A DNA stretch of 64,000 bases from Viridothelium virens (taxonomy: Eukaryota > Ascomycota > Dothideomycetes > Trypetheliales > Trypetheliaceae), in the NCBI GenBank assembly GCA_010094025.1, contig ML991793.1, forward strand, positions 308,614-372,613, in the 5' to 3' direction. The notes below the pieces were generated by a model. The model did not search any database and was not told where the DNA came from. It saw nothing but the letters and a program-made list of their open reading frames with translations. The translations under genes and the position numbers were made by a program. Each line of letters starts with the position of its first letter. Position 1 is the first letter of the stretch. Positions 1,251 through 63,217 of the stretch are shown piece after piece.

Positions 1251-3515
1251 ATGGAAAGCCTTCTTCAAGCTCAACAAAGAGGGGTGGTCGTCGGACTGAA
1301 AGGCGTCGCAAACGGCAGCCCTGTTTCTCGCTTGGATATTGACGAGCTTTTGGTCAAAAAGCCTGACGCATTCAATCTTTTCTTGCTAGCCTTGGACGAT
1401 CTGCAGAATGAGAAAAACACGAAGGAAAAGATGGGCTACTACCAAGTGGCTGGTATTGCGCATCCCCTCTCTGCTTGAATTGGAACTAAGACGTGTTCGT
1501 TGCAGGTATTCATGGTCTCCCTAGATCATTCTGGGATGGCATCAAAAATGCGAACAAGACAGTTGATCCAAGGGGATGGGCAGGTCAGGGCTACTGTACT
1601 CACTCGCGACCTACCTTTCCAACTTGGCACCGCCCGTATCTAGCGATGTTTGAGGTGTGTCGCATTACTCCGAACCTGTACCGTGATCAGCGCTCAGACG
1701 ATGTAGCAAACTTTATACGCAAAGATGGCTGAAATAGCGGAGCTATTCCCAGAGAATGCCAAAAAAAAGTATCGGGATTCCCTGAAAGATTTCCGACTTC
1801 CATATTGGGACTACTACAAGCCGCGGAATCAGACAAAGACAAAGATGCCTGGTATCACCCAACCGGGGGGAGCGACAAGCTTTGAATATGACTTCGGAAT
1901 TCCTCAGGTGTTTACTGTCGAGTCTGTGATGGTTCGAAGGACCTCGGACGACCAGCTCGAGCCTCTTGAAAATCCATTGAATCGCTTCATCTTCCCTTCG
2001 TCTGGGGGCTTTGCGGATGCCGACTGGACCTTAGTGTCTAATTTCTCCAAGAAACAGACGGTCAGGTACCCTTCTAGCATCAGTGACACGAAGGGCAGCT
2101 CCACTTTGTTAAATGCGACTCTCAACAGAGAACGCGAAAACAATACAACTATCATTCTCGATATGATCAAAGACTACAACAGCTTTGCATCATTTTCTAG
2201 TGATTCGCTGTCACCTGGATTGTCGGGCAGTCTCGAAGACATTCATGGCAACTACCATGGCCTCATTGGAGGTCCTCGCGGACGTCAAGGACACATGAGC
2301 CAGGTGCCGATCGCAGCGTTCGACCCCATCTTTTGGATCCATCACTGGTAGGAGAGCCCCCTCTCACAGAACAGGTTCTTGTTGTGCTGATACCAATACA
2401 GTCAAATTGACCGCTGGCTGGCTATATGGCAAGCAGCCCATCCAGACAAGTGGTTCGACGGGCAGTATCAGGAACTGGTGAACCGCAGGTGGACGCCGAC
2501 CGACATTGCGCCCTTGGCTGAAGAAGTCGCCGTTCCATTCCGTCATCCGCAAGGTTCATTCTGGACTGCTAATCTCGCCAGAAAGACCGATGACTTTGGT
2601 TACGTTTATAAAGATGCCATCGGCTCGCCACAGGAAGTCAGGGCCAAGTTTGCAAGCCTATACTCGTGGGCTGTGCGGTCACGTACCGGAACCGGAAAGT
2701 ATGGTCCGCCGCCTCCAGATATGGTTCCCAATGCGAACGCCGTCAACTCTGCTCAAGTCTTCCAGTACACAGCGGTGAACAAGGTAACCAACTTCGCCAG
2801 CTCAGCTGCTTTTGAAGCTCCTCAGACCGTCATGAACTTCCTACAAACCACCACGTCTGCCGCGAGCGAGAAAGCAGGAATCTCGTCATCCGAGAAGGCA
2901 GAAGAAACCAATGGCGATGCCGCTGCCAGCACGAATCCGGTAGCCCCTGAGGCTAACAATTCTGATATTTCCTTCACAAATCTTCTGCAGAATCAAGTTG
3001 CCGCGGCTCCGAACACTGTCGATGAATCCAGATACAGTCGAGATTGGTACGTTGACAACGTTGTCGAGAGACTTGCTCTCAACGGCTCCTTCACGATTTT
3101 CTACTTCGTCGGCAATTTCAATAGTGTCGACGTTGAAAATTACGAGCTTCAACCCACCATGGCTGGTCTCAACCACGTCTTCACGTCAAGCCGAGAAGCT
3201 TGCGACAACTGTGGCGTTCAGGCTGAAGAGGGTCACCTGATCTCTGGTACTAAGCCAATCACTCCCATGCTCCTCGATTACGTCAAGATTGGCGAGCTGC
3301 CAGATATTACACCGGCTAATGTTGTGCCGTTCTTGACGAAGAATCTGAAGTGGAGAATCGTAGGCGCGAGTGGTGAGCCTGCAAACCCGAGGACAGTTGC
3401 TGGCTTCAAAGTTGGTGTATCTTCGAAGCTCAGCCCATTGACCGGTACAGACGGAGGGCCAATCTATGAAGAATACCCACAGATCGTGGAGCAGATTATT
3501 GAAAATGCATCCTAA
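1251..3515 (+). CDS. Tyrosinase (polyphenol oxidase), type-3 copper, 701 aa
   Basis: Oxidises monophenols and o-diphenols to quinones, the first step towards melanin-like pigment. Exons 1251-1452, 1506-1654, 1707-2347 and 2402-3515 join in frame. The CuA site shows His70 (IHGLP), Cys98-Thr-His100 (GYCTHS, the thioether Cys-His pair) and His109 (PTWHRPY). CuB shows His297 and His301 (DIHGNYH) and the FWIHHCQIDR motif around residues 326-335, which is rebuilt across the third intron. After residue about 420 comes a Ser/Ala/Glu-rich linker, then a C-terminal domain containing TIFYFVG, typical of the fungal C-terminal lid that is clipped on activation. There is no signal peptide, so the enzyme is probably intracellular. 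The third exon start (CAAACT at 1707) restores FEQTLY, the usual family sequence. The family call is secure; exon ends are inferred. Confidence 0.95.
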
Positions 3516-10402: not shown

Positions 10403-13400
10403 CTACCATGTCGATTCGCTGTAGTTTGGTGGAAGATACTTGGCTTTATTGCCCTCGTCCTTGTCCGTCCAATGATACATCATACGGTTCTTCTTGTGCT
10501 CAGTGATGAAATCTTGCAACTTAGAACCCTTGAGCCGCCCAATGGTTTCAATACGTGACAGTTTGCCAATGTTTAGTTCAAGTTGTTTGGCTCGGGAGGC
10601 TGCCAGCAAAGGTCGCGAAGCGTCAGTCATGAAACCGGCGGTGTCAACAATAGTGAAGTCGTTGATGAGAATATCCACTTGTCCGCCTTGGATATCGTCA
10701 GATTTCTCAATCACCAACTCGCTCATGTCAAGCTCTGGATACAGTGTTTGCAGCCAAGCCTGAGCTCGGCGGTATCGTTGGTACTGGGCATGGTATGGAG
10801 TTAAGATACCAATGTCCCGAGGCTTGAGGTCGAGATTCTTCTCCTCTAAGAGACGGCGAACCATGTATATAGCAATACCGACGTTGTACGAGTTGGATTG
10901 ACTCTTGGCTGCGCTCATACGGGTTTCTCCACCTTTGACGTTCAACCAAAGACAGTTTGTATCTTTACCAAACCAGCCTTTCATGAGTTTGGTGAGTTGC
11001 TTGCTGCGTTCCTGCCTCAAAGGATGTGGACCGGTTACGAGTTTACCATCGTACCAAATCGGTGAGATAACATCACAGATGTTAGGATGGAAGCGATTCT
11101 GAACAAACAACTCGATCATAGCGGCTCCGTTTACGATGCAACGTCCCATGAAGGATACCTTAGCGTAGCTGACGAATTGATTCCCGCTGTGCGGAGTCTT
11201 GGTGATGGGGGTGCCTTGTGTCGAATCTCCGCAAAGCAGAATGATTTTGGCATTGACTTGTCCCAGTCCAGAGCACATTCTGACGTCTGTGATGCGACTA
11301 GCTTCATCATAGGCGAGTAGGCGGGTATCTTCGATCGGAAGACGGATTTTGTCTTCCGCCAGGGATGATGGAGTAAGGATGACAGCGTCGGCTCGTCGCA
11401 GGACGTATGCTACAGCCTTTCCTATCTCTTGACTGAGACTAGCCGAATCTTCTTCATCCCAGTCGGGGTCAAGGGCGTAGCGATCATAGAGTTCGCGCAG
11501 GAGTTCGAAGAGTTTTGGTCGAGCGAGGGGGTGGTTGCGGTAGTCTTTCCATCCTGCGACTTTCAAGATCCATGTGCCAATCGCGTGTTCGAGGCTTATC
11601 ACAAGCTTGTCATTGATGCCGAAAAGCTTTCGAGTGCCTCTTTGATATTCATGCAAGATCTGCTGCCCCGCTCGCATTTCCGTGATTGTGCCGACAAGTG
11701 GAATGTGGATATCCGGCTTGTGTTTCGGGCGAAGACGATTGGCCTCTCTCTTCACAATGTCATCCTCAGTCTTGTACGGATAGACTCGTACGATCATCAC
11801 TTCTCGGTGCTTGACGTGCGACTTGACGAAAGCGCTCATCGAGTCCGCGAGGTCGTTAGCCGTTCTATCCATGGGCACGACAATGATAGAGAGCCAGGGA
11901 TTAACAATATCCTTGAGTGCTAAGAAGGCTTTGTTCGTCAACTGCTCGTTTATCCCTCCAGGTGCCGAGGGTCCCAGTGCGCCTTTTTCTTCGACCTTGG
12001 TTGGCCCGGGGATTTCTTTACGTTGTAGTGCCATCAAGGTGACAACAACCTTGAGCACTTCAGACTTCCCAGTACCTGCAAACCCCTTGATAAAGACCCA
12101 GCCGTCGGGAGCTTGGCTGAATTGAATCATAGCATGGTTTTGCTCTTTGTGGAGATGTCCGCCCACTCGGCGGATATCCTCTTTGAGTTGGGACATGTCG
12201 GCAGCAGGCAACTTGTCAGTTGCTGCCCAGAGATTGACGTACGTATTTGGCGTAAGATCATTCCCAAGGATATATTTGTGAATGTGAGGGTAATGCTTCG
12301 TCTTGATCTTATCGTATACGGCTGCAATCGTGTTAATCGTCTGCTTGAATGTCTTCTCCTCGTTCTCGTTCCATGGTCGCAGCCACACCAACTTCGGTCG
12401 AGTTGTCTGGATGGCTCTAAATGCATCCCGGGGTTTCTCGATCTGATCTAAGATTGGCATGTCATCATCTTTGAGATTTGTCCGGTCCCATCCTGCCTCT
12501 CCAAATGGACGGTCGACTTGCAAAACTATATCGTTGGGTCCCGAATATGGAATTGACTCGAGAACCTTGCACTTGTATTTTTGTGCTTCACTTAGATCCC
12601 CATCAAAGAACAGGTCGCACATATCTTCAGGTTTGAGAGTGGTGCGCTGAGATCCGCTCTTGACGATTACGAGGTAGCGTGAGTCTCCAATACTCTTCTT
12701 GGAGGACTGAGAAACTGGTTGAGATTTTTCGTCCGCTGGAATTTCTGTTCCCGGCAAACGAGTCCAAATTGACTTCATTGGTACAGGTTCTCGCAACATG
12801 TTCCGATACTCATGCGCCTCTAACTCGCTATAGACAACGTGGATCAACCATTCCGGTACGTCAGCAAAGAAGGATGGAGCTGGAAATTGCCTCCCATCAG
12901 CACGGTCTTCCTTTTTGGCAAAGTTTCCCTTCTGCACGACAATGATGTTGTCGCCTCCGGTCGGAAAGAACTGCTTGTAAAGTGGCTGCTTGCGTTTCTG
13001 TTGTTCGGCGATTTTGTATTGAAAAGTCTCTACTCTGGATGGAATAGAGCCTCCTCGCGTTAAGAAGATGACCTTGATAGGTCGTCGAACGATAGCGCGG
13101 AGATGTTCAAGCGCTTTATCATGGCAGCCGAAATTGGGATCAGTAGGGAAAACATTGCTCGCATGGATTGAACCATGGGCCTCAAAGCTGATCTCGAAAG
13201 AACCATCGTCAAGATCGTCCTGCAATTCCTGTTCCGAATGACCAGTGTATACAGATTGGTCAAGGTCTTGCATGTCCTCTACTCGACGATACTGAAGCGC
13301 ATCAATATTGCGCGCGGTGAAAGCTAGTATGGCCGTGGACCTGTATTGATCCACCTTTTTATTTGATCCTTGGGGGAGGGAAAATTGGATGTCGATGTTA

Positions 13401-13828
13401 ATGAAGATCTTGGGAATCCAATGGTCATCGAGTTTGATGCAACAAGCAATTTTCTCTTCGAAATTTTGACCTCTGTCGACTTTCGTATTTTCCTTGAGTT
13501 CCTTTTTGGTCTTGAAAACATTGGGTGGTGGAGCACTACCAAGTACCAAGGTAGGGAGCTTCTGTGCGGCTACTATATCGGGGTCTCGAGGCAATTCTAG
13601 AAGGTCAAGGGCCTTAAGCTTGTTCACCATCTCATATTCACGTTCAAAGGTTGTTGTTGCCCATTCGTCTTTCTTGTCAATCTCTTGGATGGACAACAAT
13701 CTCGGAAAGCGAAGCTCTATGTTGTTGGTGGCATTGTAATCGATATTTGCGTTGCCATCGAAGAGTTGCTGACGAACACTATAGGAAGCTGGTGGCGCCT
13801 TCTTGGTTGCGGATGATGATGATGCCAT
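10403..13828 (-). CDS. SF1 helicase-like P-loop NTPase (DNA2/NAM7/Upf1-like), 1141 aa
   Basis: An intronless single open frame. The N-terminal half (about 1-570) matches no domain I can name. The C-terminal half is a superfamily-1 helicase core: Walker A GFAGTGKS near residue 585, Walker B LLAYDEAS near 840 (DEAS in place of the usual DEA[S/A]Q), an RFHPNI block near 910, GILTPYHAQ near 1020, an IQGGQVDILI block near 1047, and a final SRAK block near 1077 that resembles the Upf1-type R-finger motif. Such proteins unwind nucleic acids or remodel RNA-protein complexes, but the substrate cannot be told. The insert between Walker A and B (about 250 residues) is long. The start at 13828 is the first ATG of the frame. 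Confidence 0.85.
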   Translation of the reverse strand: MASSSSATKKAPPASYSVRQQLFDGNANIDYNATNNIELRFPRLLSIQEIDKKDEWATTTFEREYEMVNKLKALDLLELPRDPDIVAAQKLPTLVLGSAPPPNVFKTKKELKENTKVDRGQNFEEKIACCIKLDDHWIPKIFINIDIQFSLPQGSNKKVDQYRSTAILAFTARNIDALQYRRVEDMQDLDQSVYTGHSEQELQDDLDDGSFEISFEAHGSIHASNVFPTDPNFGCHDKALEHLRAIVRRPIKVIFLTRGGSIPSRVETFQYKIAEQQKRKQPLYKQFFPTGGDNIIVVQKGNFAKKEDRADGRQFPAPSFFADVPEWLIHVVYSELEAHEYRNMLREPVPMKSIWTRLPGTEIPADEKSQPVSQSSKKSIGDSRYLVIVKSGSQRTTLKPEDMCDLFFDGDLSEAQKYKCKVLESIPYSGPNDIVLQVDRPFGEAGWDRTNLKDDDMPILDQIEKPRDAFRAIQTTRPKLVWLRPWNENEEKTFKQTINTIAAVYDKIKTKHYPHIHKYILGNDLTPNTYVNLWAATDKLPAADMSQLKEDIRRVGGHLHKEQNHAMIQFSQAPDGWVFIKGFAGTGKSEVLKVVVTLMALQRKEIPGPTKVEEKGALGPSAPGGINEQLTNKAFLALKDIVNPWLSIIVVPMDRTANDLADSMSAFVKSHVKHREVMIVRVYPYKTEDDIVKREANRLRPKHKPDIHIPLVGTITEMRAGQQILHEYQRGTRKLFGINDKLVISLEHAIGTWILKVAGWKDYRNHPLARPKLFELLRELYDRYALDPDWDEEDSASLSQEIGKAVAYVLRRADAVILTPSSLAEDKIRLPIEDTRLLAYDEASRITDVRMCSGLGQVNAKIILLCGDSTQGTPITKTPHSGNQFVSYAKVSFMGRCIVNGAAMIELFVQNRFHPNICDVISPIWYDGKLVTGPHPLRQERSKQLTKLMKGWFGKDTNCLWLNVKGGETRMSAAKSQSNSYNVGIAIYMVRRLLEEKNLDLKPRDIGILTPYHAQYQRYRRAQAWLQTLYPELDMSELVIEKSDDIQGGQVDILINDFTIVDTAGFMTDASRPLLAASRAKQLELNIGKLSRIETIGRLKGSKLQDFITEHKKNRMMYHWTDKDEGNKAKYLPPNYSESTW

Positions 13829-15173
13829 ATTGACTGATCAGAGTTGAAGGTAACAAGAGAGCATTCGAATGTGCTATTGCTTTGCGAAGGTATCTAGAAA
13901 CTTTGCAGGAGTACTGAGAGCCAAAAAGCTGTAGAGCAGGCAAAGCTGAATGGGAAGGTTGAGGAAGAAAGAAGAATGGCAGGTGCGTGGGCGGAGGACT
14001 GTATATATGCTAGCTGCTAGCCGAGAATTGAAAGAGTGGGTCGGATCAAGTGACAAACCCCCGGACGCAAGTGAGTGAGTCAAAGTGGTTGTGAGTGAGA
14101 AGTGAATGAGCCGATATATGAGCACGTGGGGGTGAGATGTATAAGGTAAGTGAGGCAGAAAAATAAGTGGGAAAATAATAAGTATCTCTTCGTCGCAAGA
14201 ACCAAGTCGCGGTCGACTTCACGTGGCTCCAATCTACAATGAAATTTTCATCGCCATGAAGATGGACCTTGGCTTCGATGCCGCCAAGTAGCAATGGTGG
14301 TACGGACATTCGCCTCTCCGGATAGGTTTTGATGCGAGGCGGGAGTTCGAGTTTGAAGACAGCAGACCGACTTTGGCTTTGGCATTGAAAGGATCACTGT
14401 AGTAGCTCCAAGCCGGTCGTACTCTGCAAACGGTAGCCATGCTGAAAGCCTGTTTTCACCGTAGATTAGGCGTCGGACCATGATCTCTACAATTTGGGAG
14501 AGGACTATACGGTCGAGAGCTTGCTGATAGAGTTTATGAAAGACTTTCGGTCGGCCGAACAAAGGGCCGCTGTGCTTCTGGCCGAGGTTGTAGAGAGCTC
14601 GAGGTGCAGAGCTACAGGCAACATTTACGGAGTTGCCCCCGGAGGCAGATTTGCCTGTCTAAAAGCAGTAGGAGGCATGCGGTTGTTCAAAAAGCTAAAG
14701 TACCTAATAGAGCACGTCAAATTTGGCGGAGTGTTAGGTAATCACATCAAAGGAGCCAATGACGCAGTTCAACTGCTGACCTCTTAGAGGTTTTCCCCAT
14801 AACCTGCACAGCCTCCCTACTTGTGAAGTTACGTTTCACAGCCAAGCTATCAAATTGCGGTAATATTCACTGACAGTGTTTGCTACCAGGCATCGGCCGC
14901 AAGTGGTGATGAGGTCACAAGCGTAACCATTGTCCTCTCGATATTCCGTGCACCCCCCCATCGTGATCTCGAGGCGGTGCCATGATATGCAACCAAGTTT
15001 CTTGAATTGATTTCTTGGAATGCACTCCGCAGACCTTGATGACAGCAGATGCTTGTCTCTTTGATTGGGGCCTTCCCAGATCAGAATGCGGCATTTGAGA
15101 TGTAGTCGCATTGGTTTGATATCTTAGCCAGCAGCACTTTTGGTGCCTCTTCAAGTTTCCGAAATACCGGAGT
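13829..15173. other. Intergenic, possible relic only
   Basis: Promoter side of the helicase gene plus about 1 kb of unassigned sequence. Minus-strand frames about 14235-14562 look partly coding (for example FKLELPPRIKTYPERR in one frame), but stops break them and no domain is recognisable. The plus frame 14494-14787 lacks an ATG start. I call no gene here. Confidence 0.45.
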
Positions 15174-16978
15174 TCAGAGGCTCTGCTTTCCTCTGGATTC
15201 AATTGGCAAGGCCGCCATCGCAATGCTGGAAACTACGAAAAGAGCTGCTGCTACCAATATCGGAGCCGAGATGTGAACTTTGCCTATCTGAACGGCGAGA
15301 ACAGGTGCAAGGACACCTGCGATACGATTCAGAAATGAAGCGACACCTGTCCCCGTGCCACGATAGGGTGCTGGAAGCACTTCAGGAGTGTATGCATAGA
15401 GTACGCCGTACATAATATTCTGTGCAGGGTCATATATGTCAGCCGATTATGTCTGCTGACATATATCAAAAGGTATTGACTCACTTGGGTAAAGGACTCA
15501 AGTGAAGACATTGCCGTTTGGAAATTTGAGTTGGACGAAAGCGTGAACAGGTAGAGCAAAATGCCACTGATCAGAGTCGACACAGCCATGGTCCCTTTGC
15601 GACCGAGATACTTCAGATCTACCGTATAGCATGCAAGAATGGCACCAGGGAAGCCAACAATTGCTGTGATTAGTATGTCTCGGTAAGCCACATCAGTGGA
15701 GGTTGGGCCTTCTTCCGGTCCAGCATCGGCATTGGAAAGATATTGGGGGAGGAAGGCATTAAAAAGAGGGAAACCAAGTCCAATTGCAGTCCAGATGAAC
15801 CAAATCAGAGTCACAGTTATCCCTAATTTCCAAGTTCCAAAAAGTGGCGCTAGCCGTTGAGTCGAGAATTTGCTCAGATTCCGCCTGGCTATATCTAGAA
15901 AGCCCGGCCTCTTGATACCGACGGCATTCAAGTCCTTCTTATGATCTCTGACGCTCAGAAGGCGTTCTTCCGTTAATGAGGTTTCAGTGCCGTTGTAGGC
16001 AGCTATTCCGCGGACGACATCGACTGCCTCACGCAATCGGCCGTGTGAAACTAAGAATTTGGGGGACTCGTAAAGTTTGAAGAGGAAGAAGCGGCAGATA
16101 AACATGGTGAACGTAATGGCGCCAAGAGTTATGATCGTGTATCGCCACCCCATGTTATTAGCTCTTGAGCAACATGGTTCTTCTCCTCCAGTGGCCGCAC
16201 AAGTTTTCAGATCGGTGGCGCACGAATAATTTGGAATCAATGCCCAGCCCACCAGAGACGACAGAAGTTGGCCAAGCGGCCACCAAACAGAGAGAAGAGT
16301 CAACAAGTTCCCAGATGAAGAGGGCAAAAATTCCAGAAACAAGGCTCCGTCAACCGGTAGATTGCCACCAACACCAAATCCCATTAATGCGTATCCCAAG
16401 TTTACTGTGGTCCAATTGGGGGCAAACCCTGATATGAACCCGAAGATACCGGCAATCATAAGCGTGAAATTAAATGCCCTTTTTCTTCCAATCACGTCGG
16501 ATGCAACGCCCCAAAAGCTCGCCCCGAAAGATAGACCAATATACGTAGCCATAGTCGTGTAACGAATCGTGTTAGTGTCTATTCCGAACTCTACCGAAAG
16601 CTGCGGAAGAGTAAGAGCAACGCCCTGCATCCAAATATTGTCGGCAAGCCATCCGAAACCGCAAAGTATGAAAAGACGCCATTGATATTTGCCCATACCA
16701 ATATCTTGAATGGCTTTGTTGATGATCTTCGATCTCCGGTCGTAAGTGGACTCTCCGGAAGAGACTGCCTCCTCGTCGCCCGTCTGTAACTTTGCATCCT
16801 CTGAAGACCGGTCGTCGTCCTCAAGACCATCAAGACTATCTGTGTCGTTCTGATGCTGACTTCGGGATCCTTCCTCCTCTACAGAGAACCACGTTTCGCT
16901 TTCTTGCAAGGGCACGGCCTCCTCCGGACCAGATCCCGATCGTTCGTGCCTTTTGAAAGGCCTGAGGAGGAACGACAT
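15174..16978 (-). CDS. MFS transporter, SVOP/sugar-porter type, 579 aa
   Basis: Proton-coupled or facilitative membrane transporter. Exons 16978-15485 and 15419-15174 join in phase 0. The N-terminal 100 residues are cytosolic, acidic and Ser-rich. The twelve-helix body follows, with the MFS signature between TM2 and TM3 (GVASDVIGRKRAF) and an early FILCGFGWLADNIWMQ helix, as in synaptic-vesicle-2-like fungal carriers. The second exon carries TEVLP-type TPEVLPAPYRGTG and the last two helices. The substrate is unknown; homologues move organic acids, sugars or aromatic compounds. Its start is divergent from slx9 (442 bp apart). It lies about 2 kb from the hydrolase-fusion gene, so a supply role is possible but not shown. 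Confidence 0.9.
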
Positions 16979-17420
16979 ATTATCTCCACATCCAGCAATT
17001 AAGACGATATCGCACTGGAAGATTGGTTGGGTGGCGGACGATGACTGATGTGAATTGGCAAAGCTGAGACGTGCTCGGTCACAAAACGAACGTCCGTCAT
17101 TGGTGAGACTTCAAGATAACTTTGCAACTGAATTAAGTCAAACCTCACGTGACAGGGGATGCATGCGATGCCAATGCGATTCTTTCCAATGATTAGAGAA
17201 TAAGAGCGCGCTTGCATACCTGAGGTACCTAGTATGTAGGTAGCTAGCTATGCAAACTGCAGGGACTGGGAGGGGTGCTTCGCTTCAGAAAGAGTCGGAT
17301 CGGTTCCATGTCTCGATGTTGCTGACAAAGGACATCTCTCGCTTAACCTTCCTCACGAACAGGATTGGTTGTTATTTCCTGCCGTACTCTCTGATAATTT
17401 GGCCTCAGTAATTTTCGATC

Positions 17421-18003
17421 ATGGTATGTTTGAAAGTCGGAGCGACCATTTTTTTCAGTTGCTAAAGTTGCAAAGGCCCCAATTCGTCCTCAATCTCAAC
17501 GACGTACATTGAAGACCAGTAGTCAACGTGAACACGTTCATCGACCCACCAAATCTGACGATTCAGCCTTCGCCTCGTCTAAGAAGGACAAACGGCTCAT
17601 TAAACACTCGGCCCTAGTCAATAGGATCCAGAAACAGAGCTTCAGAGCTCAAAGAAAACGAAGGAGACCAAACAAGAAGCTTGTTACCACACTAGAGTCA
17701 CTAGCAGACGCTTTACCAGACGTAGACCAGGAGGCTGCTACAGAGGCTGCCAGGATTTCATCCGAGCAGGCGAACGTTAGACGCAAGGCCTTGCTGAGCC
17801 GACCTGGGCTGCAAAAGTGCAAGGAGAAAACCAATAAAGAGGAACGGGAGCGGTTCAGTCAGAACCTCGCGCAGATGATTGGCAGCAAAGCTACAACTCC
17901 AGGTACAGAGATCGGCTCGACGCCCAATTTGGTAACTAAGCCAGTTGATCGATGGGCTCTGCTGCGAGAGCACATAATGCAGAACGTTGAGAAGATCCCT
18001 TGA
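17421..18003 (+). CDS. slx9: SLX9-like ribosome biogenesis protein, 176 aa
   Basis: Small basic nucleolar protein associated with 40S pre-ribosome maturation and export in yeast. The best model has a 3-nt first exon (17421-17423, just ATG), a 52-nt intron starting GTATGT and ending CAAAG, and exon 2 at 17476-18003. This gives an N-terminus MAPIRPQSQRRTLK that continues the open frame without a stop. Using the nearer CAG (17456-17458) instead puts exon 2 out of frame. The body has Lys/Arg-rich blocks (KKDKRLIKHSALVNRI, RAQRKRRRPNKK), a helical middle with LADALPD, and a C-terminal FSQNLAQM segment, all features of the SLX9 family. The family call rests on this pattern and length. Confidence 0.8.
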
Positions 18004-18975: not shown

Positions 18976-21900
18976 ATGGCGCCTGGATTGTTGCAGACAA
19001 TCGGCACTGATAATCTGATCAATGGCACGAATGGCGCCGTAAAGGCAAACGGCCTCACGAACTCACGCAAAAGATTTCCGCATGAAGACGTGCATTTTGA
19101 TTCCTCCCTGAAACCCAAGAACTACCAAATCAAGGGCACATCTCCAGACTCCAAGATACTCTTCAAAGATGTCAACATTCTAGACAGCACGGGCAAGGAG
19201 CCATATCGAGGTGACGTCTTCATTCAAGGTAGCTCCCTGCAATCCAAAATCCGATGCACAGACTAAGAATCTCCAGGCGAACGCATCCGCTACGTCGGCC
19301 ATGTCCCCGATATTAACTCCCTCACAAACGATGTCACTGTCCGCATCATTCAAGGCCGTGGCCGCACACTCATGTCTGGTCTTGGCGACGCCCACACGCA
19401 CTTCAGCTGGAACGAAGGAGACCTGGGCCACCTCGGCGAGCTTGGCGTCGAAGAGCACACGCTCCTCACCGCACGCAGTGCCCAAACCTACCTCGACAGC
19501 GGCTACACCATGTGCTACGGCGCCGCGTCTGCGAAAAGCCGGCTCGACTGCGTGATCCGCGACGCGATCAACGAGGGCCAGCTGCCGGGACCGCGATATC
19601 TGGCCAATGGCAAGGAGATGGCCGTTCCTGATGGGGAGCTCGTGGCTGGGATCACGGCATTTGCGAAGGGTCCGTTGGAGATGCGGGAGACGATCAGACA
19701 CCATATCGATATCGGAGTGGATCAGATCAAGTTGAGTATGAGTGGGGAGGAGATCACAGAGGTGCGCAGCGCGCAGGATTGTTACTTCAGTGATGAAGAG
19801 ACGGCGGCGTGTGTGGATGAGGCGCACCGAAGAGGGGTGCGGCTATGTGCACATGCGAGGGCAAGGGATAGCGTCAAGATGTGCATTAACCATGGCGTGG
19901 ACGTAATCTATCATGCGAGTTGGATTGATGAGGAGGGGATGGAGATGTTGGAGAAGAACAAGCACAAGCATATAGTGGCCCCCGGCATCAATTGGCTCAT
20001 CGCGACGTTGTATGAGGCGGGATCCTTCGGTTATTCGTTCTCGAAGGCGGAGCAGGTGGGATATAAAAAGGAGTTGGACGCTGCGATCAAGGGTCTGACC
20101 GAGATGCATAGAAGAGGTATTTGCGTTCTTCCAGGGGGAGACTACGGATTTAAATGGACAAAACACGGGACGTATGCGCGGGACTTAGAGCATTTCGTCA
20201 AACTTCTGGAATTCAGCCCTCTCGAAAGCGTGGTTGCTGCCACCGCCGGGGTCGCAAAATTGTTTATGCGAGAGGATGAGCTAGGCAAGATCTTACCTGG
20301 TTATTTTGCTGACTGTATCCTGGTGGATGGGAATCCCCTGGAAGATATTTCTATATTGCAAGATCACGATAAGTTGAACGCAATCATCATCAACGGACGG
20401 ATCCATAAACTTTCTCACAAAGAACTTCTACGAGACCAACCTCAGCTAGTTATGGCAGAGAAAGAGCCAGGTCTCACAAATTTTGTGGCCTACAAACTTC
20501 CTGATGGTACTAAACGGACACGAATCGGACATCTGGACCATGCCTCAAACAAAATCACCCCTCTAGCCTTTTCGTCTGGCACTCCCATATCAAGCATGCA
20601 CGAAGTCTTTGCTGTGGACTATAGTTCTCTCCGTCCAGCAGGGGATGCCCTCAACAAAGATGCAATCAAACTACTTGCCCCAATTACCGGTCGTGATGTC
20701 CTGGCAGTTGGCAAGAACTATTCCGAGCATGCCAAAGAGTTCAACAAGTCCGGATACGACGCTTCGGATAACGTCGACATGCCATCTCATCCCGTCATCT
20801 TCACAAAACGAAGTACCTCTATAATTGCCCATGAGGACGAGATCCTGGCGCATCCCGAGTTCACCTCTACGCTGGATTACGAGGGCGAAATTGGGGTCAT
20901 CATTGGGAAGTCAGGATTCCGGATTGGAGAAGCTGAAGCTGATGATTACGTGTGGGGGTACACGATTGTTAATGATTTGACTGCCCGCGAGCGGCAAAAA
21001 GAACACAAGCAGTTCTACATAGGGAAGAGCGCTGATACTTTCTGCCCGATGGGACCGATCGCGGTGCCGAGACAGGCATTGCCGAAGGTTTTAGAAGTGC
21101 AGACCCGAGTGAATGGGGAGTTGAGACAAAAAGGCACAACCGAGGACTTGATTTTCTCAGTGCCAAAACTAATTCAAACACTTTCAGAAAGTCAGACCTT
21201 AAGGCCGGGAGATGTGATAGCCACTGGTACACCAGCTGGGGTGGGCTTCGGGCTTGACCCACCGAAGTTCTTAAGACCCGGGGATATCGTTGAGATTTCA
21301 GTCTCTGGATTGGGGACCCTTCGTAACAGAATTGCGTATCCATCCTCGGAGAACCAAGTCACAAAGCAATTGGCTGAAACGTCACCAATTCCTATCAATA
21401 ATCTATCCATTACAAACGGTGGGCTGGGGCTGACGCAAGTTGGCGACAAGAAGCTCAATGTGCGGACAATGGGCTCTGGCGATCCCATTTTTTTCGTGCA
21501 TGGTCTTGGTGGTACGACAACGTATTACGAGCCGCTGATCACCGCTGCGGAATTGGCTACAAAAAAGAAGTGTATCTTGTATGACCTTGAGGGACATGGC
21601 CTATCTCCGACGAAGGCAACGTCAGTGATCACCATTCAGTCATTGGCAGATGATCTTCTCAACCTCTTCAACCACGCCGACTTTAAAGCCCAATCCGCAG
21701 TCATAATTGCTCATTCTATGGGCTGTCTAGTTGCCGAGACATTTGCTATCCAGAACCCCCATCTTGTTCGGCAGCTCATACTAATCGGCCCACCTCCTTC
21801 GCCTTTACCTGCGGCCGCAGGTGAAGGTTGCATCAAGCGAGCAGCTGCAGTCCGTGCAGGCGGTATGTCCGCAGTGGCATCGACCGTCGTTGCCGGGGGC

Positions 21901-22221
21901 ACCTCAGAGAAAACCAAATCTAGCAATCCACTTGCTGTTGCGGCAGTGCACCAAAGCTTATTAGCGCAAGATCCAGAGGGATATGCAAAGGGGTGCACAG
22001 CGCTTGCCAGCTCTGCGCAGAGCGTCATTGACGCCGAGAAGATTGAATGCCCGACCTTGGTTGTAACAGGCGACGAAGACAAGATTTCGCCAAAAACTCA
22101 TGTCGAGGCTATGACTGGTAAATTCCGCGATGGTAAATCTGTCATCCTACATGGTGTAGGCCACTGGCATGCCTTTGAAGAAGTAAATGGGTTAAGCACC
22201 GCCATTCAGAACTTCTTGTAA
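18976..22221 (+). CDS. Trifunctional fusion: amidohydrolase + fumarylacetoacetate-hydrolase domain + alpha/beta hydrolase, 1065 aa
   Basis: Exons 18976-19228 and 19277-22221 join in frame (split Gly codon). Residues about 50-455 form a metal-dependent amidohydrolase: HTH at 124-126 (GDAHTHFSW), a candidate Lys in DQIKLSMSG, His in CAHARA and YHASW, Asp in LPGGDYG. Residues about 475-790 form a FAH-family domain: GKNYSEHAKE near 562, the metal-binding acidic motif DYEGEIGVI near 617, and CPMGP and GTPAGVG further on. Residues about 800-1065 form an alpha/beta hydrolase: oxyanion motif FVHGLGG near 823, nucleophile in AHSMGCL near 896, Asp in GDEDK near 1016, His in GVGHWHAF near 1045. All three catalytic sets look complete. 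No signal peptide is present, so it is probably cytosolic. A chain of ring-opening or amide, C-C bond and ester/lactone hydrolysis is inferred; the substrate is unknown. Confidence 0.93.
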
Positions 22222-35147: not shown

Positions 35148-36765
35148 TCAGACGCCAAAAGTGATAGACTTGATCTCCGTATACTCTTCTAACGGAGTTG
35201 AACCACCTTCACGCCCGATTCCGGACTGTTTGATGCCACCAAAGGGTTGCTCACAAGCGCTAACTAATCCGACCTGCACACCCACCATACCCGATTCTAA
35301 TGCCTCCGCAACACGCCATTGTCTGCTGGCATCCTTGGTGTAGAAGTATGACGCTAGGCCGGCGTTGGTTTCGTTTGCATACCTTATTGCTTCTTCCTCT
35401 GTTTTGAATGGAATGAGCGCGACCATGGGTCCAAATGTCTCCTCACTAGAGAATGCCAGATCACTCGTCTTAGAGGTTAGGTTAGCGCTGACCCTCAATG
35501 CAGTCGGAGGTATAAAATTGGGTCCTCTTCCTTTTTCATCCTCCAACCCGCCAGTCAACAACGTGGCGCCCTGTTTCAATGCATCTTCGAAGTGCCTCTT
35601 CACCTTTGCTACTCCCTTCGAGGAATATAAAGGGCCAAAACTTGTCTTCTTGTCCCAGACAGACCCAGCTACCAGCGTCTCCGGTATGCGTTTCAGTAAC
35701 TGCTTACTAAAAGCCTCAATCACGCTCTCATGGACAAGAACCCGATTTGCACATACACATGTCTGCCCCGACGACCGAAACTTACTCGTGATAAGACCCT
35801 CGACCGCCTTCTCCACATCCGCATCCTCAAACACAATGAAGGGAGCATTCCCCCCCAACTCCATTGACGTTCTCTTCAGCGTCTTCGCGCACTCGGAATG
35901 GAGCCACATGCCCACCGCCGTACTGCCCGTAAAGCTCAGATGCCTCACCAATCGATTCTCACACATCTCCGCCCCGCACTCCGCCGTCGTCTCCGCCGAG
36001 CACGTCACCACATTCAGCACTCCCGACGGAAAGCCACACCGCTCGAACAACTTCGCAAGCGCAATCGCACACAGCGGGGTCTCAGGCGCCGGCTTCACGA
36101 CCACCGTATTCCCCGCCGCGATCGCCGCCCCAACCTTCCTCGTAATCATCGCGACCGGACTATTCCAGGGCGTGACGGCAGCGACGACGCCCTGCGGCTC
36201 TCGCACGGTGACGATGCGGTTGTCGGCGCGGTTCGCGACGATGCTCTCGCCGCGGACGTGCTCTGTCAGCGTCTCGAACCAGTCGAGGAAGGAGACCGCG
36301 TACGCGACGGTCCCGAGCGATTCGGTGAAGGGTTTGCCCAACTCGAGCGTGCAGATGGCGGCGAGGTCGGAGGCGTGCGCCTTGATGGCGTCGGACCAGG
36401 CGCGGAGCATGAAGCGGCGCTGGCGGGGGGGCACGTGTCGGTAGGTCTGGAAGGCGGTGTGCGCGGTGGAGATGGCGTTGTGGATTTCGGGGCGGGTGAG
36501 GTCGGTGATTTCGGCTGCGAGGGCGTCGTCTTCAGGGTCTGGATGGGGAGTTGGCTATGAGGATTGGATGGTTGGGGTTGGGTGTCATACCATAGGCGGG
36601 GAAGGTCTTGTTGGAGCTTGAGCTGACCCATTCGCCGCCAATGAATGAACGTGTATCCAGGAGACTGGGATCTTTGAACTATATATCTGGTGAGTTCTTT
36701 TCTTGGAAGTAAAGGTATGTCGATTGCCTCACGGTGTATGGTATCTGCTTCTTGAGTACTGACAT
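35148..36765 (-). CDS. Aldehyde dehydrogenase, succinate-semialdehyde-dehydrogenase-like, 503 aa
   Basis: NAD(P)-dependent oxidation of an aldehyde to an acid. Exons 36765-36733, 36678-36591 and 36538-35148 join in frame. Start MSVLKKQIPYT continues into FKDPSLLDTRSFIGGEWV, the standard ALDH N-terminus. PWNSPVAMITRKVGAAIAAG, the FTGSTAVG turn of the cofactor site, the general base Glu in MELGGNAP near residue 264 and the catalytic Cys in SSGQTCVCAN near 299 are all present, as is ETFGPMVALIPF. The C-terminus EQPFGGIKQSGIGREGG is typical of the SSADH/GabD branch. The promoter (384 bp) is shared with the SDR at 37150. The precise substrate is not certain. Confidence 0.92.
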
Positions 36766-38029: not shown

Positions 38030-39059
38030 TGAGTGTGAGATCTAGAAACCAACAGTATGTAGAGTGTAAGTCCATTCGGATTTTTTAACACGGAAGACCT
38101 GTCTCTGATGGATTCTCTTTCATATCCCATTCGTGGTAGAGGTCAGTGAAGCCGATTATCTGCCGCAGCCATACAGATAGCATAATCAGAGGGTGCAATG
38201 AGAAACGTTAGCAGTGCATACAAGGCTTTATATTGCTGCGAGCCTTCCCGATTGAAGAAAGCTGAAAAGGGGCATCTGCGGGATTTCCCACGGGTTCTTC
38301 CCAGTATTGTAGTGAACTCTTCTTCTTGAACTTGGGGAAGAATTCATTGAGGGGCTCACGGCGCCAATTCGCGAAAGCATAGGAAGTCAGAATATTAGCC
38401 GACTCAAACATTGTAAATAAAATGCATCGAGGCAACACCGACAGGTCGGATTTTCTTGATGCAACAGCACGTCCTTGTATGGAAAATCATCGGAGTTGGT
38501 ATATTTCCTACGGTCTCCGACTTTCTTTGAGGGAGCTCGTTGGTCAGTGTCCATTGTGACTGCATCGGTGAATTGATCCTCTTTTGGAAAGCTCGGATAG
38601 CCAAGTTCCGCATGTTGAGGCAGGAACAGAGCAAATGCTGTACCATCAGACGCGTGAATTTCTCTTAACGGCCACGACGGCATACCTGCAGTTGTCGGCT
38701 TCTTGCACCTTAGCAGGGCAAGTGAGCCGAGGCATGCCAAAAAAAGGCTGATTATTTTGTCTCCGCATTCAAGCTCCGCTGTTGTACCGAACGCGAATGC
38801 CCCAGTATACCACGATCGATACACCAATACATCATGTCTCGTAGGCCAATGCGGGGCTTAACTGGCTCCCGTGGCTGCGGTTTCGTCGGTAGACCTGCTC
38901 TACTATCTTCGGGTCATCATTGCCCCACGTCAGTGAGTCGTCTTGTCAGTCGTATCACCATCAGTCAAAATGCGGGTTCTCTCGCAAGAACTTGATATTT
39001 ATGCTCTCTGTACCTCCCTGAAACCTTGAATCCTATCGTGATGTGATTGCTAAAGCAAA
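38030..39059. other. Intergenic, no gene recognised
   Basis: About 1 kb. A minus-strand open frame at 38387-38827 has a weakly coding look but no domain, no clear start and no continuation. The right part is the promoter of the flavin monooxygenase. Confidence 0.5.
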
Positions 39060-40988
39060 ATGGCTGCCTTGCCCATAGATGACGGGCACACGGTCGTCCT
39101 TCCCTCCCTTCCGAAGTCCTTTCCAAGACCTGAGAGCAGCCCTGTCTCGATAGCGCAGTCATGGCTCGATAGACTGAGACATACCATCAATGCAGGAAGA
39201 TTTGAAGACCTGAAAGAGCTTCTTCATGTCGAGTCCTGGTGGCGTGACGCCTTAACACTCTCATGGGATCTCCGAACCCTACACGGTTTACCCAATATCA
39301 CAGGTCTTCTCCAGAAAAGAACGGCGCGACTACATTTTAACTTCCTAAGGATTCATAGAAACGGCTATTTCGACCCCAAGTGGTGTCACATCTCTCCCGA
39401 GCTTGAATGCATTGAGACAATGTTTGAGTTTGAGACGAGCCAAGTCCGCGGCAAAGGCATGCTCAGACTTGTTCAGGATTTCGACGGGTTACGAAAAGCA
39501 TACGTACTATACACCGCGGCGCAGGAATTGGTTGGCTACGAACACGCAGCCTACACGAGGCGACCTCATGGAGGCAACAATTCCCTCGGCGGTGGAGCTC
39601 TGGCCGGAAACTGGCTGGAAAGGAGGCGACGCACAGTTGATTTTCAGGAAGCAGAGCCAACGGTCCTTGTAATTGGTGCTGGTCAAGCAGGTCTCAACGT
39701 AGCTGCTCGACTACAGGCTCTGGGAGTCTCCTGCCTACTGATCGATCGCAACAAGAGGATTGGTGATAATTGGCGCAATCGTTATCGGACTCTGGTTACC
39801 CACGATCCTGTTCATACCAGCCACATGGCCTATCTTCCATTTCCGCCGACATGGCCGTTCTTCACACCCAAAGATAAACTTGGTGACTGGTTCGAGACAT
39901 ATGCAAGCGCTATGGAGCTAAATGTATGGATAAGGACAAGCGTCAAGTCCGCCTCATATGATGAGGGGACCCTCACATGGACCGTTGATCTGTTACGTGC
40001 GGATGAAAACCAGCAACGAACTCTTCACCCTCGTCATGTCATCTTCTGCACCGGGCATTCCGGGGAGCCAAGCGTACCTTCTTTCCCTGGCCAAGACACA
40101 TTTAAGGGGAGCATCTACCACGGCAGTCAACATGAAGATGCCTCCTACTGCAAGGGCGATCTTCATGGAAAAAAGGTCCTTGTCGTCGGTACCGGCAATT
40201 CGGGCCACGATGTTGCGCAGAACTATTGCGAGAACGGCGCAGATGTAACGATGATCCAACGGGGTTCTACTTATGTGTTCACTACCACCAAAGGGCTCCT
40301 CACCATCAACAAAGGTGCCTATGAGGAAGGAGGCCCACCCACAGAAGATGCAGACGTGTATTCCCAGAGTACGCCTCTACCGCTCAAGTTCCACCTGGAC
40401 GTCGAAGGAACCAAAGAAATCGCAGAGGCGGAGAAGGAAACGCTAGATGGTCTAAGAAGTGCTGGGTTCAGGTTGAATAGTGGTGTGGGAGGCGGTGGCA
40501 TCTTGAGTAATTATTTAAGGAAAGGGGGAGGATACTACATTGACGTTGGCGCAAGTAAGCTAATCGGAGAGGGGAAGATCAAGATAGTGCAGAGTCCAGA
40601 TGGTATCAAAGGATTTGGAGAGAATGCGCTCGAGCTCGCAGATGGGAGAAAGTTGGAGGCGGATATTGTTGTTCTGGCAACAGGGTACGACAATATGCGA
40701 TCGAGTGTAAGGAAAACGCTGGGCGATAAGGTTGCCGATCGGTGCCAAGACGCTTGGGGTTTGGATGAGGAGGGTGAACTAAGAGGGGTACGTGCTCTGC
40801 ATCTGAATACGTGCATACGATCGAAGCATCCTAATGGATTCCATGTATAGATGTGGAGACCGAGTGGCCACCCGGGATTGTGGTACCAAGGAGGGAACCT
40901 CCTCCTGTGCCGCATATACTCCAGATTCCTCGCATTACAGATCAAAGCCATCGAGGTAGGCCTCAACCCACGCGGTCAAAGTAAGTGA
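39060..40988 (+). CDS. Flavin-containing monooxygenase with N-terminal NTF2-like domain, 621 aa
   Basis: FAD- and NADPH-dependent monooxygenase (class B type). Exons 39060-40787 and 40851-40988 join in phase 0. Residues about 25-180 form an NTF2/SnoaL-like fold region. The FAD Rossmann motif VIGAGQAGLNVAARL starts near 204, followed by DRNKRIGDNWRNRY. The class-B fingerprint reads DTFKGSIYHGSQH. The NADPH motif VVGTGNSGHDVA lies near 376 and the LATGYD motif near 540. A C-terminal segment with PGLWYQGGNLLLCRIYSR comes from the second exon. The predicted role is hydroxylation or oxygen insertion on a carbonyl, amine or sulfide compound. The CAAAGTAAGT at 40977-40986 could also act as a splice donor to a further exon. 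Confidence 0.92.
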
Positions 40989-61669: not shown

Positions 61670-62958
61670 CTAGGCCTCTACAACTTTGCCGAACCGATAC
61701 TGTGCCCAGCTTAAACTTCCTTCGGGAAGAGTCCACAACTGCTCGCCAAGATCCGAGCCTGCAGCTCCCGTACTGACATGAATCGGAAGAAGATGCTCCA
61801 CACTCGGATGTGCCTCTCTAGCGTCACTGCGCTGCATCAAGGCCGACATCTTTGCCTGGCGTTCCTCTGGCTTCGCTGTGGCAGCCTCTCTCAGTGCTTC
61901 GTCAAAGCTAAAGGCATAACTGAACAGCATTAGTAAGAACACGATTGACCTGATAATGCTCGGCGCGCTTGCTTACGGCATGGTCTCCCCGGTTGACAAG
62001 GTCATCCGAAAATCCCGAGTATTGTGAACAGCCATTCCCGCGCCGACAATTAGAATGCCTTCGTCCCGCAGACCTTCCAGTGCCTCTCCGACGCAGTAGT
62101 GTCGGTCCGGATCTTCATTATCGTACAGCGAAACTTGTACGATTGGCACATCCAATGGGTTCTTATTCGGATCAAAAGCTATTCGGACGGTGCGTCAGCA
62201 ATGAGATGTCGACAAAAATTCTCCATAATCACGACCTACCAACGATAAATCCTGCCCAGACGCCGTGGTCAAGGCCTCATTTTAACTCTCTCCACCTCAA
62301 TACCGACATTTGCTAGCTTCTCAATGACCTTTTCAGCAACCTCGCTACTCCCTTTGTTTGGAAATTCTTTCAGGTAATAGTGCGGCGGAAAGCCGTAGAA
62401 GTCATATATTATATCCGTCTGCTCCGCGACATTAATCTTGATCACCTTCGGGCCTCCTTGCCAATGAGCAGAAAAGACGACTACCGCCTTGGGTTTGACT
62501 TTTGTGGTAATCTCCCTCCCAACTGCAGTCAGTTGGGCATAGGCAGGATGGCCCGTATTTTCCATGGAGTTGGGCCCCCCGATGCCCAGGAAGTAGACGG
62601 GTGTCCGTCCAGAAAGGTTATCGTTGGTCGCCGAAGTCGGCATGGTTCGTGTCGAGCTATCCAGGTATGGGGGACCACAGAGGATACTTGGAGCGTGCTG
62701 GATTGATTGTGTGGTGGCAGCTTTCCAAGTGCTGCTCATGTACGACTGAACAGTGCGGTAGACGAGCGGGATGCACAAGCTCACAAGGAGAGCAGCAAAG
62801 TACTTCGAGCGGCCAACTGAACAAAGTGACGACAACACCGAGGACATAAAACACTTTTCCCAAAGTTTCCTTGACATGAAAGAAAAGAGGCACCACTCTT
62901 TGTCCTGGGCTATGTTATCATTAATTTCAACATTTCGGCAGCGGGCTGACAACTTCAT
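61670..62958 (-). pseudogene. LigB-type extradiol ring-cleavage dioxygenase (4,5-DOPA-dioxygenase-like), frameshifted
   Basis: The family opens catechol-type rings with molecular oxygen using a non-haem metal. Exons 62958-62269 region, 62178-61977 and 61919-61670 carry the class-III fold: FLGIGGPNSMENTGHPAY, VVVFSAHWQGG, DFYGFPPHYY, LDHGVWAGFIV, VPIVQVSLYDN, GILIVGAGMAVHN and the C-terminal HPSVEHLLPIHVSTGAAG. The frame breaks at about 62279: the reading frame up to VERVK is followed by one extra base, so the direct frame stops at 62269 while the LDHGVW motif lies in the next frame. Both later introns have proper GT..AG ends and phase. The long N-terminal extension (about 105 residues, with a hydrophobic segment SKYFAALLVSLCIPLVY) is unusual. 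Either a recent pseudogene or an assembly error. Confidence 0.75.
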
Positions 62959-63217
62959 TGTCAGATTGTCCAAAGGATGAGACCTTAAAAAGTTGTCGGA
63001 CTAGGTATCGATACGATCTCTTTGTCGCGCGAGTTCTAAATTGGAGAGGCTACGGAACCGTTGAGTTGTAACTTGCAACGTCCTGCCGCGCCGGCTTTCC
63101 CGCGCGCGATAGAGCATCGCATTGTATCCGTCTGCCCCACCACCTGCAGCCCACCATCTCCTGCAGGCAATTTTGACGTCCACCTCCACCACTTCAACAA
63201 CCAACAACTCCACTAAT
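62959..63217. other. Spacer between the dioxygenase and the transposon
   Basis: Promoter side of the dioxygenase and left flank or terminal region of the transposon. The transposon's terminal inverted repeat cannot be verified because the right end is outside the window. Confidence 0.4.

What the first reader, a model, noticed from the sequence alone, without database searches (positions are those of the whole stretch)
18976..22221. One polypeptide with three complete hydrolase domains: amidohydrolase, FAH and alpha/beta hydrolase
A single spliced frame of 1065 codons, with only one 48-nt intron near its 5' end, joins three unrelated catalytic folds. Each keeps its recognisable catalytic residues: HTH plus later His and Asp for the amidohydrolase, DYEGEIG-type metal ligands for FAH, and Ser-Asp-His for the alpha/beta hydrolase. 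In bacteria such enzymes sit in separate genes of ring-degradation pathways: a cyclic amide or imine opener, a C-C bond cleaver, and an ester or enol-lactone hydrolase. A covalent assembly would channel intermediates through a ring-to-acid sequence. I do not know a described fungal enzyme with this order. There is no stop or intron near the domain borders, so it does not look like an annotation merge.
Basis: partly seen in the sequence, partly recalled or inferred. Interest (0 to 1): 0.8.

Follow-up and report, generated by a model that had tools for sequence, protein, structure and literature searches.

The report
Three-enzyme bacterial operon fused in fungi
A lichen fungus makes one long protein carrying three different hydrolase enzymes; in bacteria the counterparts are usually three neighbouring genes of one small, uncharacterised operon, so the fungal gene looks like a transferred bacterial pathway joined into a single protein, with a substrate still unknown.

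Summary
In detail: join(18976..19228,19277..22221) encodes 1065 residues, the frame unbroken across both domain borders. Domains: a binuclear-metal amidohydrolase (AH), a YisK/FAHD-type FAH and a PcaD-like alpha/beta hydrolase (ABH), catalytic residues intact. It is not unique: 71 of 120 listed homologues cover all three domains, 63 of 71 with all 14 scored residues. Other fungi have a separate ~495-aa AH and ~590-aa FAH-ABH; in 11 of 19 organisms found in both listings these share a contig. In bacteria, 66 of the 80 best loci carry FAH-ABH-AH side by side on one strand, often with a GntR/FCD regulator; nine of these have FAH-ABH in one ORF. All 8 plasmid regions read (of 20 records) carry the module. 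Trees make the fungal rows one clade beside Actinobacteria and favour, but do not prove, a single AH fusion. Best reading: a portable three-step hydrolytic catabolic module of bacterial type, acquired by fungi and fused. Substrate, order of steps and channelling are untested. Ten paper searches found no description.

The parts
18976..19228 (+). exon 1 (start ATG 18976)
19229..19276 (+). 48-nt intron, GT...AG, CTAA branch-like motif
   Evidence: spliced product agrees in length with the annotated Trypethelium protein P0001
19277..22221 (+). exon 2, uninterrupted to the stop
19147..20415 (+). amidohydrolase fold, residues ~58-464 (interrupted by the intron); metal ligands H124, H126, K236, H277, H297, D373
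20416..20475 (+). AH-FAH linker, residues 465-484, part of it (471-482) low-confidence in the P0001 model
20479..21333 (+). FAH region, residues 486-770: N-terminal subdomain 486-558 and catalytic core 559-770 (H569, E572, E620, E622, D651, Q658, K668)
21424..22218 (+). alpha/beta hydrolase fold, residues 801-1065; S898, D1019, H1047

Best explanation
The gene encodes a trifunctional catabolic hydrolase. It is the fused fungal form of a bacterial three-gene module, FAH > ABH > AH, often found with a GntR/FCD regulator. Most likely the AH domain hydrolyses an amide (or lactam/lactone) of a small carboxylic acid by binuclear-metal chemistry, the ABH domain hydrolyses an ester or enol-lactone by Ser-Asp-His chemistry, and the FAH domain acts with a divalent metal on the released 2-oxo or 1,3-dicarbonyl acid (tautomerisation plus C-C hydrolysis or decarboxylation), feeding central metabolism. 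Shown here: the fusion in the DNA, intact active-site residues, the bacterial gene order, clustering of the split genes in a number of other fungi, and fungal AH and FAH-ABH each forming one clade next to Actinobacteria. Inferred: joint action on one substrate, horizontal origin, and a single fusion of AH to FAH-ABH. Not known: the substrate, the order of steps, and whether tethering channels an intermediate.
For: Architecture and frame. Conservation: 71 of 120 listed homologues cover all domains, 63 of the 71 keep 14 scored catalytic residues. 108 of 108 stand-alone AHs aligned (of 114 listed, chosen by length) keep the AH ligands. Bacterial collinear adjacency in 66 of 80 loci, FAH-ABH in one ORF in 9 of the 66. 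Annotated module in 8 of 8 plasmid regions read, of 20 records. In 200 genomes of the family of Pseudonocardia dioxanivorans, 13 of 14 with a close AH (81-100% identity) also have the close FAH, in all 13 it lies 808-897 nt upstream on the same strand. Trees. Solved relatives.
Against: No substrate or activity is known to me for any member. No NCBIfam equivalog cutoff is reached (P0001 and bacterial members). Of ten window frames scanned none but perhaps an MFS transporter next door suggests a catabolic cluster. Three metagenome proteins lack the FAH core and 13 of 118 stand-alone FAH-ABH proteins lack the ABH Ser or His, so not every lineage needs all three activities. Eight of 19 organisms show the split genes on different contigs or strains. 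The AH and FAH-ABH trees put different Actinobacteria next to fungi, both with modest support (84 and 87), and the chosen outgroup of the AH tree was not one side of a branch. Holding all stand-alone fungal AHs together is not rejected (p-AU 0.182). Bacterial order FAH-ABH-AH differs from fungal AH-FAH-ABH, so fusion was not simple read-through.
Confidence: 0.62

Rival explanations
1. Annotation-type merge: two or three neighbouring genes that only look like one.
For: Such merges seem to occur in this family: P0059 and P0072 (Fusarium decemcellulare) and P0098 (Colletotrichum) read FAH-ABH-AH, which looks like adjacent genes joined by gene prediction; split genes are neighbours in other fungi.
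Against: In the window the frame is open for 984 codons through both borders, with no intron there; 103 of 120 listed homologues have the order AH-FAHn-FAH-ABH; the fused AH rows form one clade (support 98 without P0062 and P0123).
Confidence: 0.03
2. A fusion with only one or two relevant activities: FAH works as a housekeeping oxaloacetate tautomerase/decarboxylase like YisK/FAHD, while AH and ABH do something else or serve as scaffold.
Against: FAH, ABH and AH are held together in Actinobacteria, Proteobacteria, Bacteroidota and Bacillota; the AH is patchy (1 of 246 genomes drawn from the phylum, the centre itself; 15 of 200 in the family), unlike a housekeeping repair enzyme.
Confidence: 0.2
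3. Detoxification rather than carbon catabolism: the module destroys an antimicrobial or plant N-acyl/lactone compound, AH being ochratoxinase-like.
Against: Only 22-25% identity to those enzymes; FCD-GntR regulators (best LldR/NanR/UxuR models, all below cutoff, one member scanned) suggest carboxylate sensing; a toxin-resistance role would not obviously need the FAH step.
Confidence: 0.15

Closest known systems
Bacterial FAH - ABH - amidohydrolase gene set, often with GntR/FCD (unnamed; generic product names only)
   Same: Same three families, 49-65% (AH), 49-59% (FAH) and 34-42% (ABH) identity, adjacent genes; nine Actinobacterial loci have FAH-ABH as one ORF
   Different: Separate genes, order FAH-ABH-AH, bacterial regulator; the fungal protein is one chain in the order AH-FAH-ABH
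YisK / FAHD (FAH superfamily; oxaloacetate tautomerase and decarboxylase)
   Same: N-terminal subdomain plus core, 46% identity over 277 aligned residues, metal and catalytic residues kept
   Different: YisK and FAHD are stand-alone; activity of the fungal domain is untested
Prolidase / Arg carboxypeptidase / ochratoxinase amidohydrolases (3feq, 3mkv, 3be7, 4c5y)
   Different: 22-28% identity; NCBIfam Xaa-Pro dipeptidase 164 of 500 bits
PcaD 3-oxoadipate enol-lactonase (2xua) and Thermogutta esterase (4uhc)
   Different: 24-29% identity; PcaD model 115 of 256 bits
Bacterial operons transferred to fungi (e.g. the yeast siderophore operon; recalled, no call)
   Same: Operon-like gene set of bacterial type in fungi
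   Different: Here split, two-domain and three-domain forms are all present and all three genes end in one chain

Membership tests
Subtype I amidohydrolase | HxH, bridging carboxylated Lys, two His, Asp | tested here: met
   H124/H126/K236/H277/H297/D373 present; H124 in 68 of 71, H126 68, K236 70, H277 71, H297 70, D373 70; ligand set as described for ochratoxinase (PMC11342369, passages). Carboxylation itself not testable.
Xaa-Pro dipeptidase (NF051886) | curated score cutoff | tested here: not met
   163.6 bits against 500, P0001
Prolidase / N-acyl-amino-acid hydrolase activity | hydrolysis of an amide next to a free carboxylate | not testable with these tools
   needs enzyme assay
FAH superfamily, YisK/FAHD type | metal ligands E-x-E...D; His-Glu pair; Gln/Lys of the FAHD site; N-terminal subdomain | tested here: met
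HpaG C-terminal decarboxylase (TIGR02303) / 2,4-didehydro-3-deoxyrhamnonate hydrolase (NF053535) | curated cutoffs | tested here: not met
   162.9 of 276.4 and 158.4 of 500 bits, P0001
Alpha/beta hydrolase | Ser-Asp-His triad on the fold | tested here: met
3-oxoadipate enol-lactonase PcaD (TIGR02427) | curated cutoff | tested here: not met
   114.9 of 255.85 bits, P0001
Bacterial FAH-ABH-AH gene set | the same three enzymes, related by descent | tested here: met
   one-way tblastn of the fungal domains finds all three adjacent in 66 of 80 loci; fungal rows one clade beside Actinobacteria in both trees. Strict orthology was not tested.
Bacterial FAH-ABH-AH gene set | GntR/FCD regulator beside it | not tested
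   found in bacteria (one cluster in 39 of 80 loci, one member identified by Pfam; all 8 plasmid regions read); not searched for in the fungal genome

The most novel reading that the evidence does not exclude
An undescribed, self-contained three-step hydrolytic pathway, carried as a mobile operon by soil and plant bacteria, was taken up by fungi and assembled stepwise (separate genes, then FAH-ABH, then AH-FAH-ABH) into one chain that holds a labile 1,3-dicarbonyl intermediate between active sites; some fungi later dropped one activity again.
Probability: 0.3. Interest if true: 0.72.

Novelty: new variant of a known kind. Interest (0 to 1): 0.58.

Why it matters
It links an unnamed bacterial gene set, seen from Actinobacteria to Proteobacteria, Bacteroidota and Bacillota, with a widespread fungal protein whose database names are mostly 'hypothetical protein' or 'fumarylacetoacetate hydrolase'. 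Because the same three activities exist as an operon, as two genes and as one fused gene, one substrate identification in a laboratory bacterium would help to annotate hundreds of bacterial and fungal genes, and the natural series lets one test what covalent tethering buys. It is also a candidate case of a bacterial-type pathway acquired by fungi and fused there.

Tried and rejected
Reading as a merge of neighbouring genes: rejected on the DNA frame and clade structure. Split paralogues in the host genome: by E-value the next AH match is 29% identical and the next ABH match 30%; other FAH genes exist there (12 matching stretches in all) and were not followed. Conserved further enzyme in the bacterial operons as a substrate clue: none constant in what I scanned (about 30 selected ORFs and 8 annotated plasmid regions); sporadic BCAA-type ABC transporters, aldehyde dehydrogenase, aminotransferase, YcsF, SDR, MFS, CoA ester lyase. 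NCBIfam for a specific name: nothing over cutoff among the six proteins given. Direction of fusion versus fission from the FAH-ABH tree: the free tree nests the two-domain fungal clade inside the three-domain rows, but a tree with the three-domain rows as one clade scored 16.45 log units higher (p-AU 0.797), so this is unsettled, with one fusion favoured; in the AH tree holding the stand-alone rows together is not rejected either (p-AU 0.182). Phylum-wide profile: only the centre genome of 246 had the AH, so the profile was redone in the family; some of those genomes, judged by matching coordinates, are also among the L021-L100 loci, so the two counts are not independent. Domain arrangement for channelling: not interpretable at pTM 0.48 (the model is of P0001, 2 residues different from the window's protein).

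Literature: ten searches. Six of them were aimed at the fused protein or the operon and gave no description of either in the listings; the others were about YisK, the host, operon transfer and ochratoxinase. The held library is open-licence PMC only. PMC7842363 (passages) has an unrelated decarboxylase-like amidohydrolase; PMC8301969 (passages) does not mention FAH. The YisK paper PMC10810218 is not held.

Rows dropped: the residue count used the 71 of 120 listed hits covering each domain to 80%; the listed 120 are the best of 505, of 1127 and of 4906. The AH tree used every second of 60 fused rows, every fourth of 107 stand-alone rows plus 5 chosen ones, and 36 of 80 bacterial loci chosen by hand; P0062 and P0123 were left out. 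The FAH-ABH tree used every second fused row, every third two-domain row plus P0059, and 35 bacterial loci chosen by hand; P0062 was left out. P0094, P0102 and P0070 were left out of both trees, P0078 and P0081 also of the second.

Full report
OBSERVATION. The window lies in a 30.7-Mb, 175-contig genome. Frame 19267-22221 is open for 984 codons. Joining 18976-19228 to 19277-22221 removes a 48-nt GT-AG intron and gives 1065 residues. Pfam places Amidohydro_1 at 116-460, FAA_hydrolase at 559-770 and Abhydrolase_1 at 821-1053. The best database match, P0001, is a Trypethelium eluteriae MAG protein of the same length differing at 2 of 1065 residues, so the host is that lichen fungus (Dothideomycetes) or a very near relative.

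THE FAMILY. Of 120 homologues listed (best of 505), 71 cover all three domains to at least 80%. A BLAST domain scan of the 120 gives AH-FAHn-FAH-ABH in 103, the same with AH in two pieces in 2, AH-FAH-ABH in 2, AH-FAHn-FAH in 5, AH-FAHn in 2, FAHn-FAH-ABH-AH in 3 and AH-FAHn-ABH in 3; some of the 103 have a cut AH. Fused members occur in Dothideomycetes, Eurotiomycetes, Lecanoromycetes and Sordariomycetes (names; class checked for one member each). Of the 71, 63 keep all of 14 scored residues: H124, H126, K236, H277, H297, D373 (AH); H569, E620, E622, D651, K668 (FAH); S898, D1019, H1047 (ABH); the ABH triad is complete in 71 of 71. E572 (71 of 71) and Q658 (69 of 71) also hold. The AH set equals the binuclear site described for A. 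niger ochratoxinase: two His in HxH, two further His, Asp and a carboxylated Lys (PMC11342369, passages). Q658 and K668 align, by my reading of motifs, with the FAHD1 residues Q109 and K123 discussed in PMC12176266 (one section and passages read).

SPLIT FORMS IN FUNGI. The AH domain is 69-78% identical to 30 aligned stand-alone fungal amidohydrolases, mostly about 495 aa, including Basidiomycetes and Pezizomycetes; the 108 aligned (of 114 newly listed, chosen by length) all keep the AH ligands. A search with the FAH-ABH part of a Fusarium protein newly lists 118 two-domain FAH-ABH proteins, mostly about 590 aa (best 120 of 1127). In the other eight the contig differs, some being other strains (for example Talaromyces rugulosus, Bipolaris maydis). 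In Fusarium decemcellulare the two genes look merged by annotation in the order FAH-ABH-AH.

THE BACTERIAL OPERON. In 66 of 80, FAH, ABH and AH lie in this order, adjacent and on one strand; in 9 of the 66 FAH and ABH share one open frame (Rhodococcus, Williamsia, Nocardia, Streptomyces). Of the other 14, L034 overlaps by four bases and fails only the rule, L095 has FAH-AH-ABH, L097 FAH-AH, L100 FAH-ABH divergent from AH, L054, L078, L096 and L099 are at contig ends, and L080, L082, L083, L085, L091 and L098 lack the full set nearby. An ORF cluster whose scanned member is a GntR/FCD regulator occurs in 39 of 80 loci; a second such cluster in 5 (my ORF calling was crude). On plasmids, 20 records hold the AH at E up to 1e-80; the 8 regions that I read all carry GntR/FCD, FAH, ABH and AH together (Corynebacterium, two Azospirillum, Pseudomonas, Paraburkholderia, Pantoea, Cupriavidus, Priestia; in Priestia FAH is divergent; in one Azospirillum a DUF1636 gene lies between ABH and AH). 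In 200 genomes of the family of P. dioxanivorans, 15 have an AH match, 14 of them close (81-100%), and 18 the close FAH (70-100%); 13 have both, always the FAH 808-897 nt upstream on the same strand, room for the ABH (Fisher p 1.3e-15, ignoring relatedness); 5 have the FAH alone and 1 the close AH alone. In 246 genomes of the phylum only the centre has the AH: the module is patchy.

EVOLUTION. In the AH tree all 66 fungal rows form one clade (100), placed among mostly Actinobacterial rows when drawn from Proteobacteria (next to Arthrobacter/Corynebacterium, 84; the outgroup was not one side of a branch, and a few Proteobacterial and Bacteroidota rows lie inside); fused rows with the FAH-less ones form one clade that also takes in the partial protein P0123 (86; 98 without P0062 and P0123). 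In the FAH+ABH tree the fungal rows are one clade (100), next to the nine bacterial one-ORF FAH-ABH (87; the union 94, not starred); the fungal three-domain rows as one clade are not rejected and score higher (p-AU 0.797). The simplest history, which is inference, is an Actinobacterial FAH-ABH joining, transfer with AH to fungi, and one later joining of AH to the front. Three metagenome proteins (P0089, P0092, P0095) lack the FAH core and sit together inside the fused clade (97), which suggests secondary loss. In 13 of 118 stand-alone FAH-ABH proteins (seven Trichoderma, four Xylaria, two others) the ABH Ser and/or His is replaced; one more has an FAH defect.

MECHANISM. Conserved co-localisation of these three enzymes over several bacterial phyla, plus fusion in fungi, argues that they act on one substrate series. 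By family chemistry (established knowledge, not tested here) AH cleaves an amide or lactone, ABH an ester or enol-lactone, FAH tautomerises and cleaves or decarboxylates a 2-oxo or 1,3-dicarbonyl acid. I put 0.62 on a joint catabolic module, with the order of steps and the substrate open. Channelling is only a possibility.

NOVELTY. The fused architecture sits in databases as 'hypothetical protein' or 'fumarylacetoacetate hydrolase' and similar, and the bacterial genes under generic names. Ten full-text searches, six of them aimed at the protein or the operon, found no description (listed under Tried and rejected). I rate it a new variant of a known kind: multienzyme fusions and operon transfer are known (recalled), this module and its fused form appear not to be described in what I could search.

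Noticed in passing
P0310, P0311, P0316, P0318, P0329, P0335, P0348 (Trichoderma), P0299, P0312, P0315, P0323 (Xylaria), P0248 (Fusarium), P0288 (Stylonectria), stand-alone FAH-ABH proteins: The alpha/beta hydrolase Ser and/or His is replaced (13 of 118 proteins), so this domain may be a pseudo-enzyme there.
   Followed up: partly
P0089, P0092, P0095 (metagenome proteins): FAH catalytic core missing between AH and ABH; they form one clade inside the fused family.
   Followed up: partly
P0081 (Aspergillus oryzae), P0102 (Talaromyces): Gene models extended into a fungal transcription-factor domain and an MFS transporter, probably merged neighbours; possible regulator and transporter of the pathway.
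   Followed up: no
window 15329-17110 (-) and 17434-18003 (+): MFS transporter and ribosome-biogenesis SLX9 upstream of the fused gene.
   Followed up: partly
L102 9496-9891 and L023 11369-11812: DUF1636 protein inside or just after the FAH-ABH-AH genes in some bacteria; the ORF cluster of the L023 gene is in 12 of 80 loci.
   Followed up: no
window 10403-13837 (-): Single open frame of 1144 codons with AAA_12/AAA_30 matches.
   Followed up: no
window 62269-63000 (-), 35148-36554 (-), 39054-40850 (+), 2391-3515 (+): LigB-type ring-opening dioxygenase piece, aldehyde dehydrogenase, FMO-like monooxygenase and tyrosinase C-terminal domain in the same window, not next to the fused gene.
   Followed up: no
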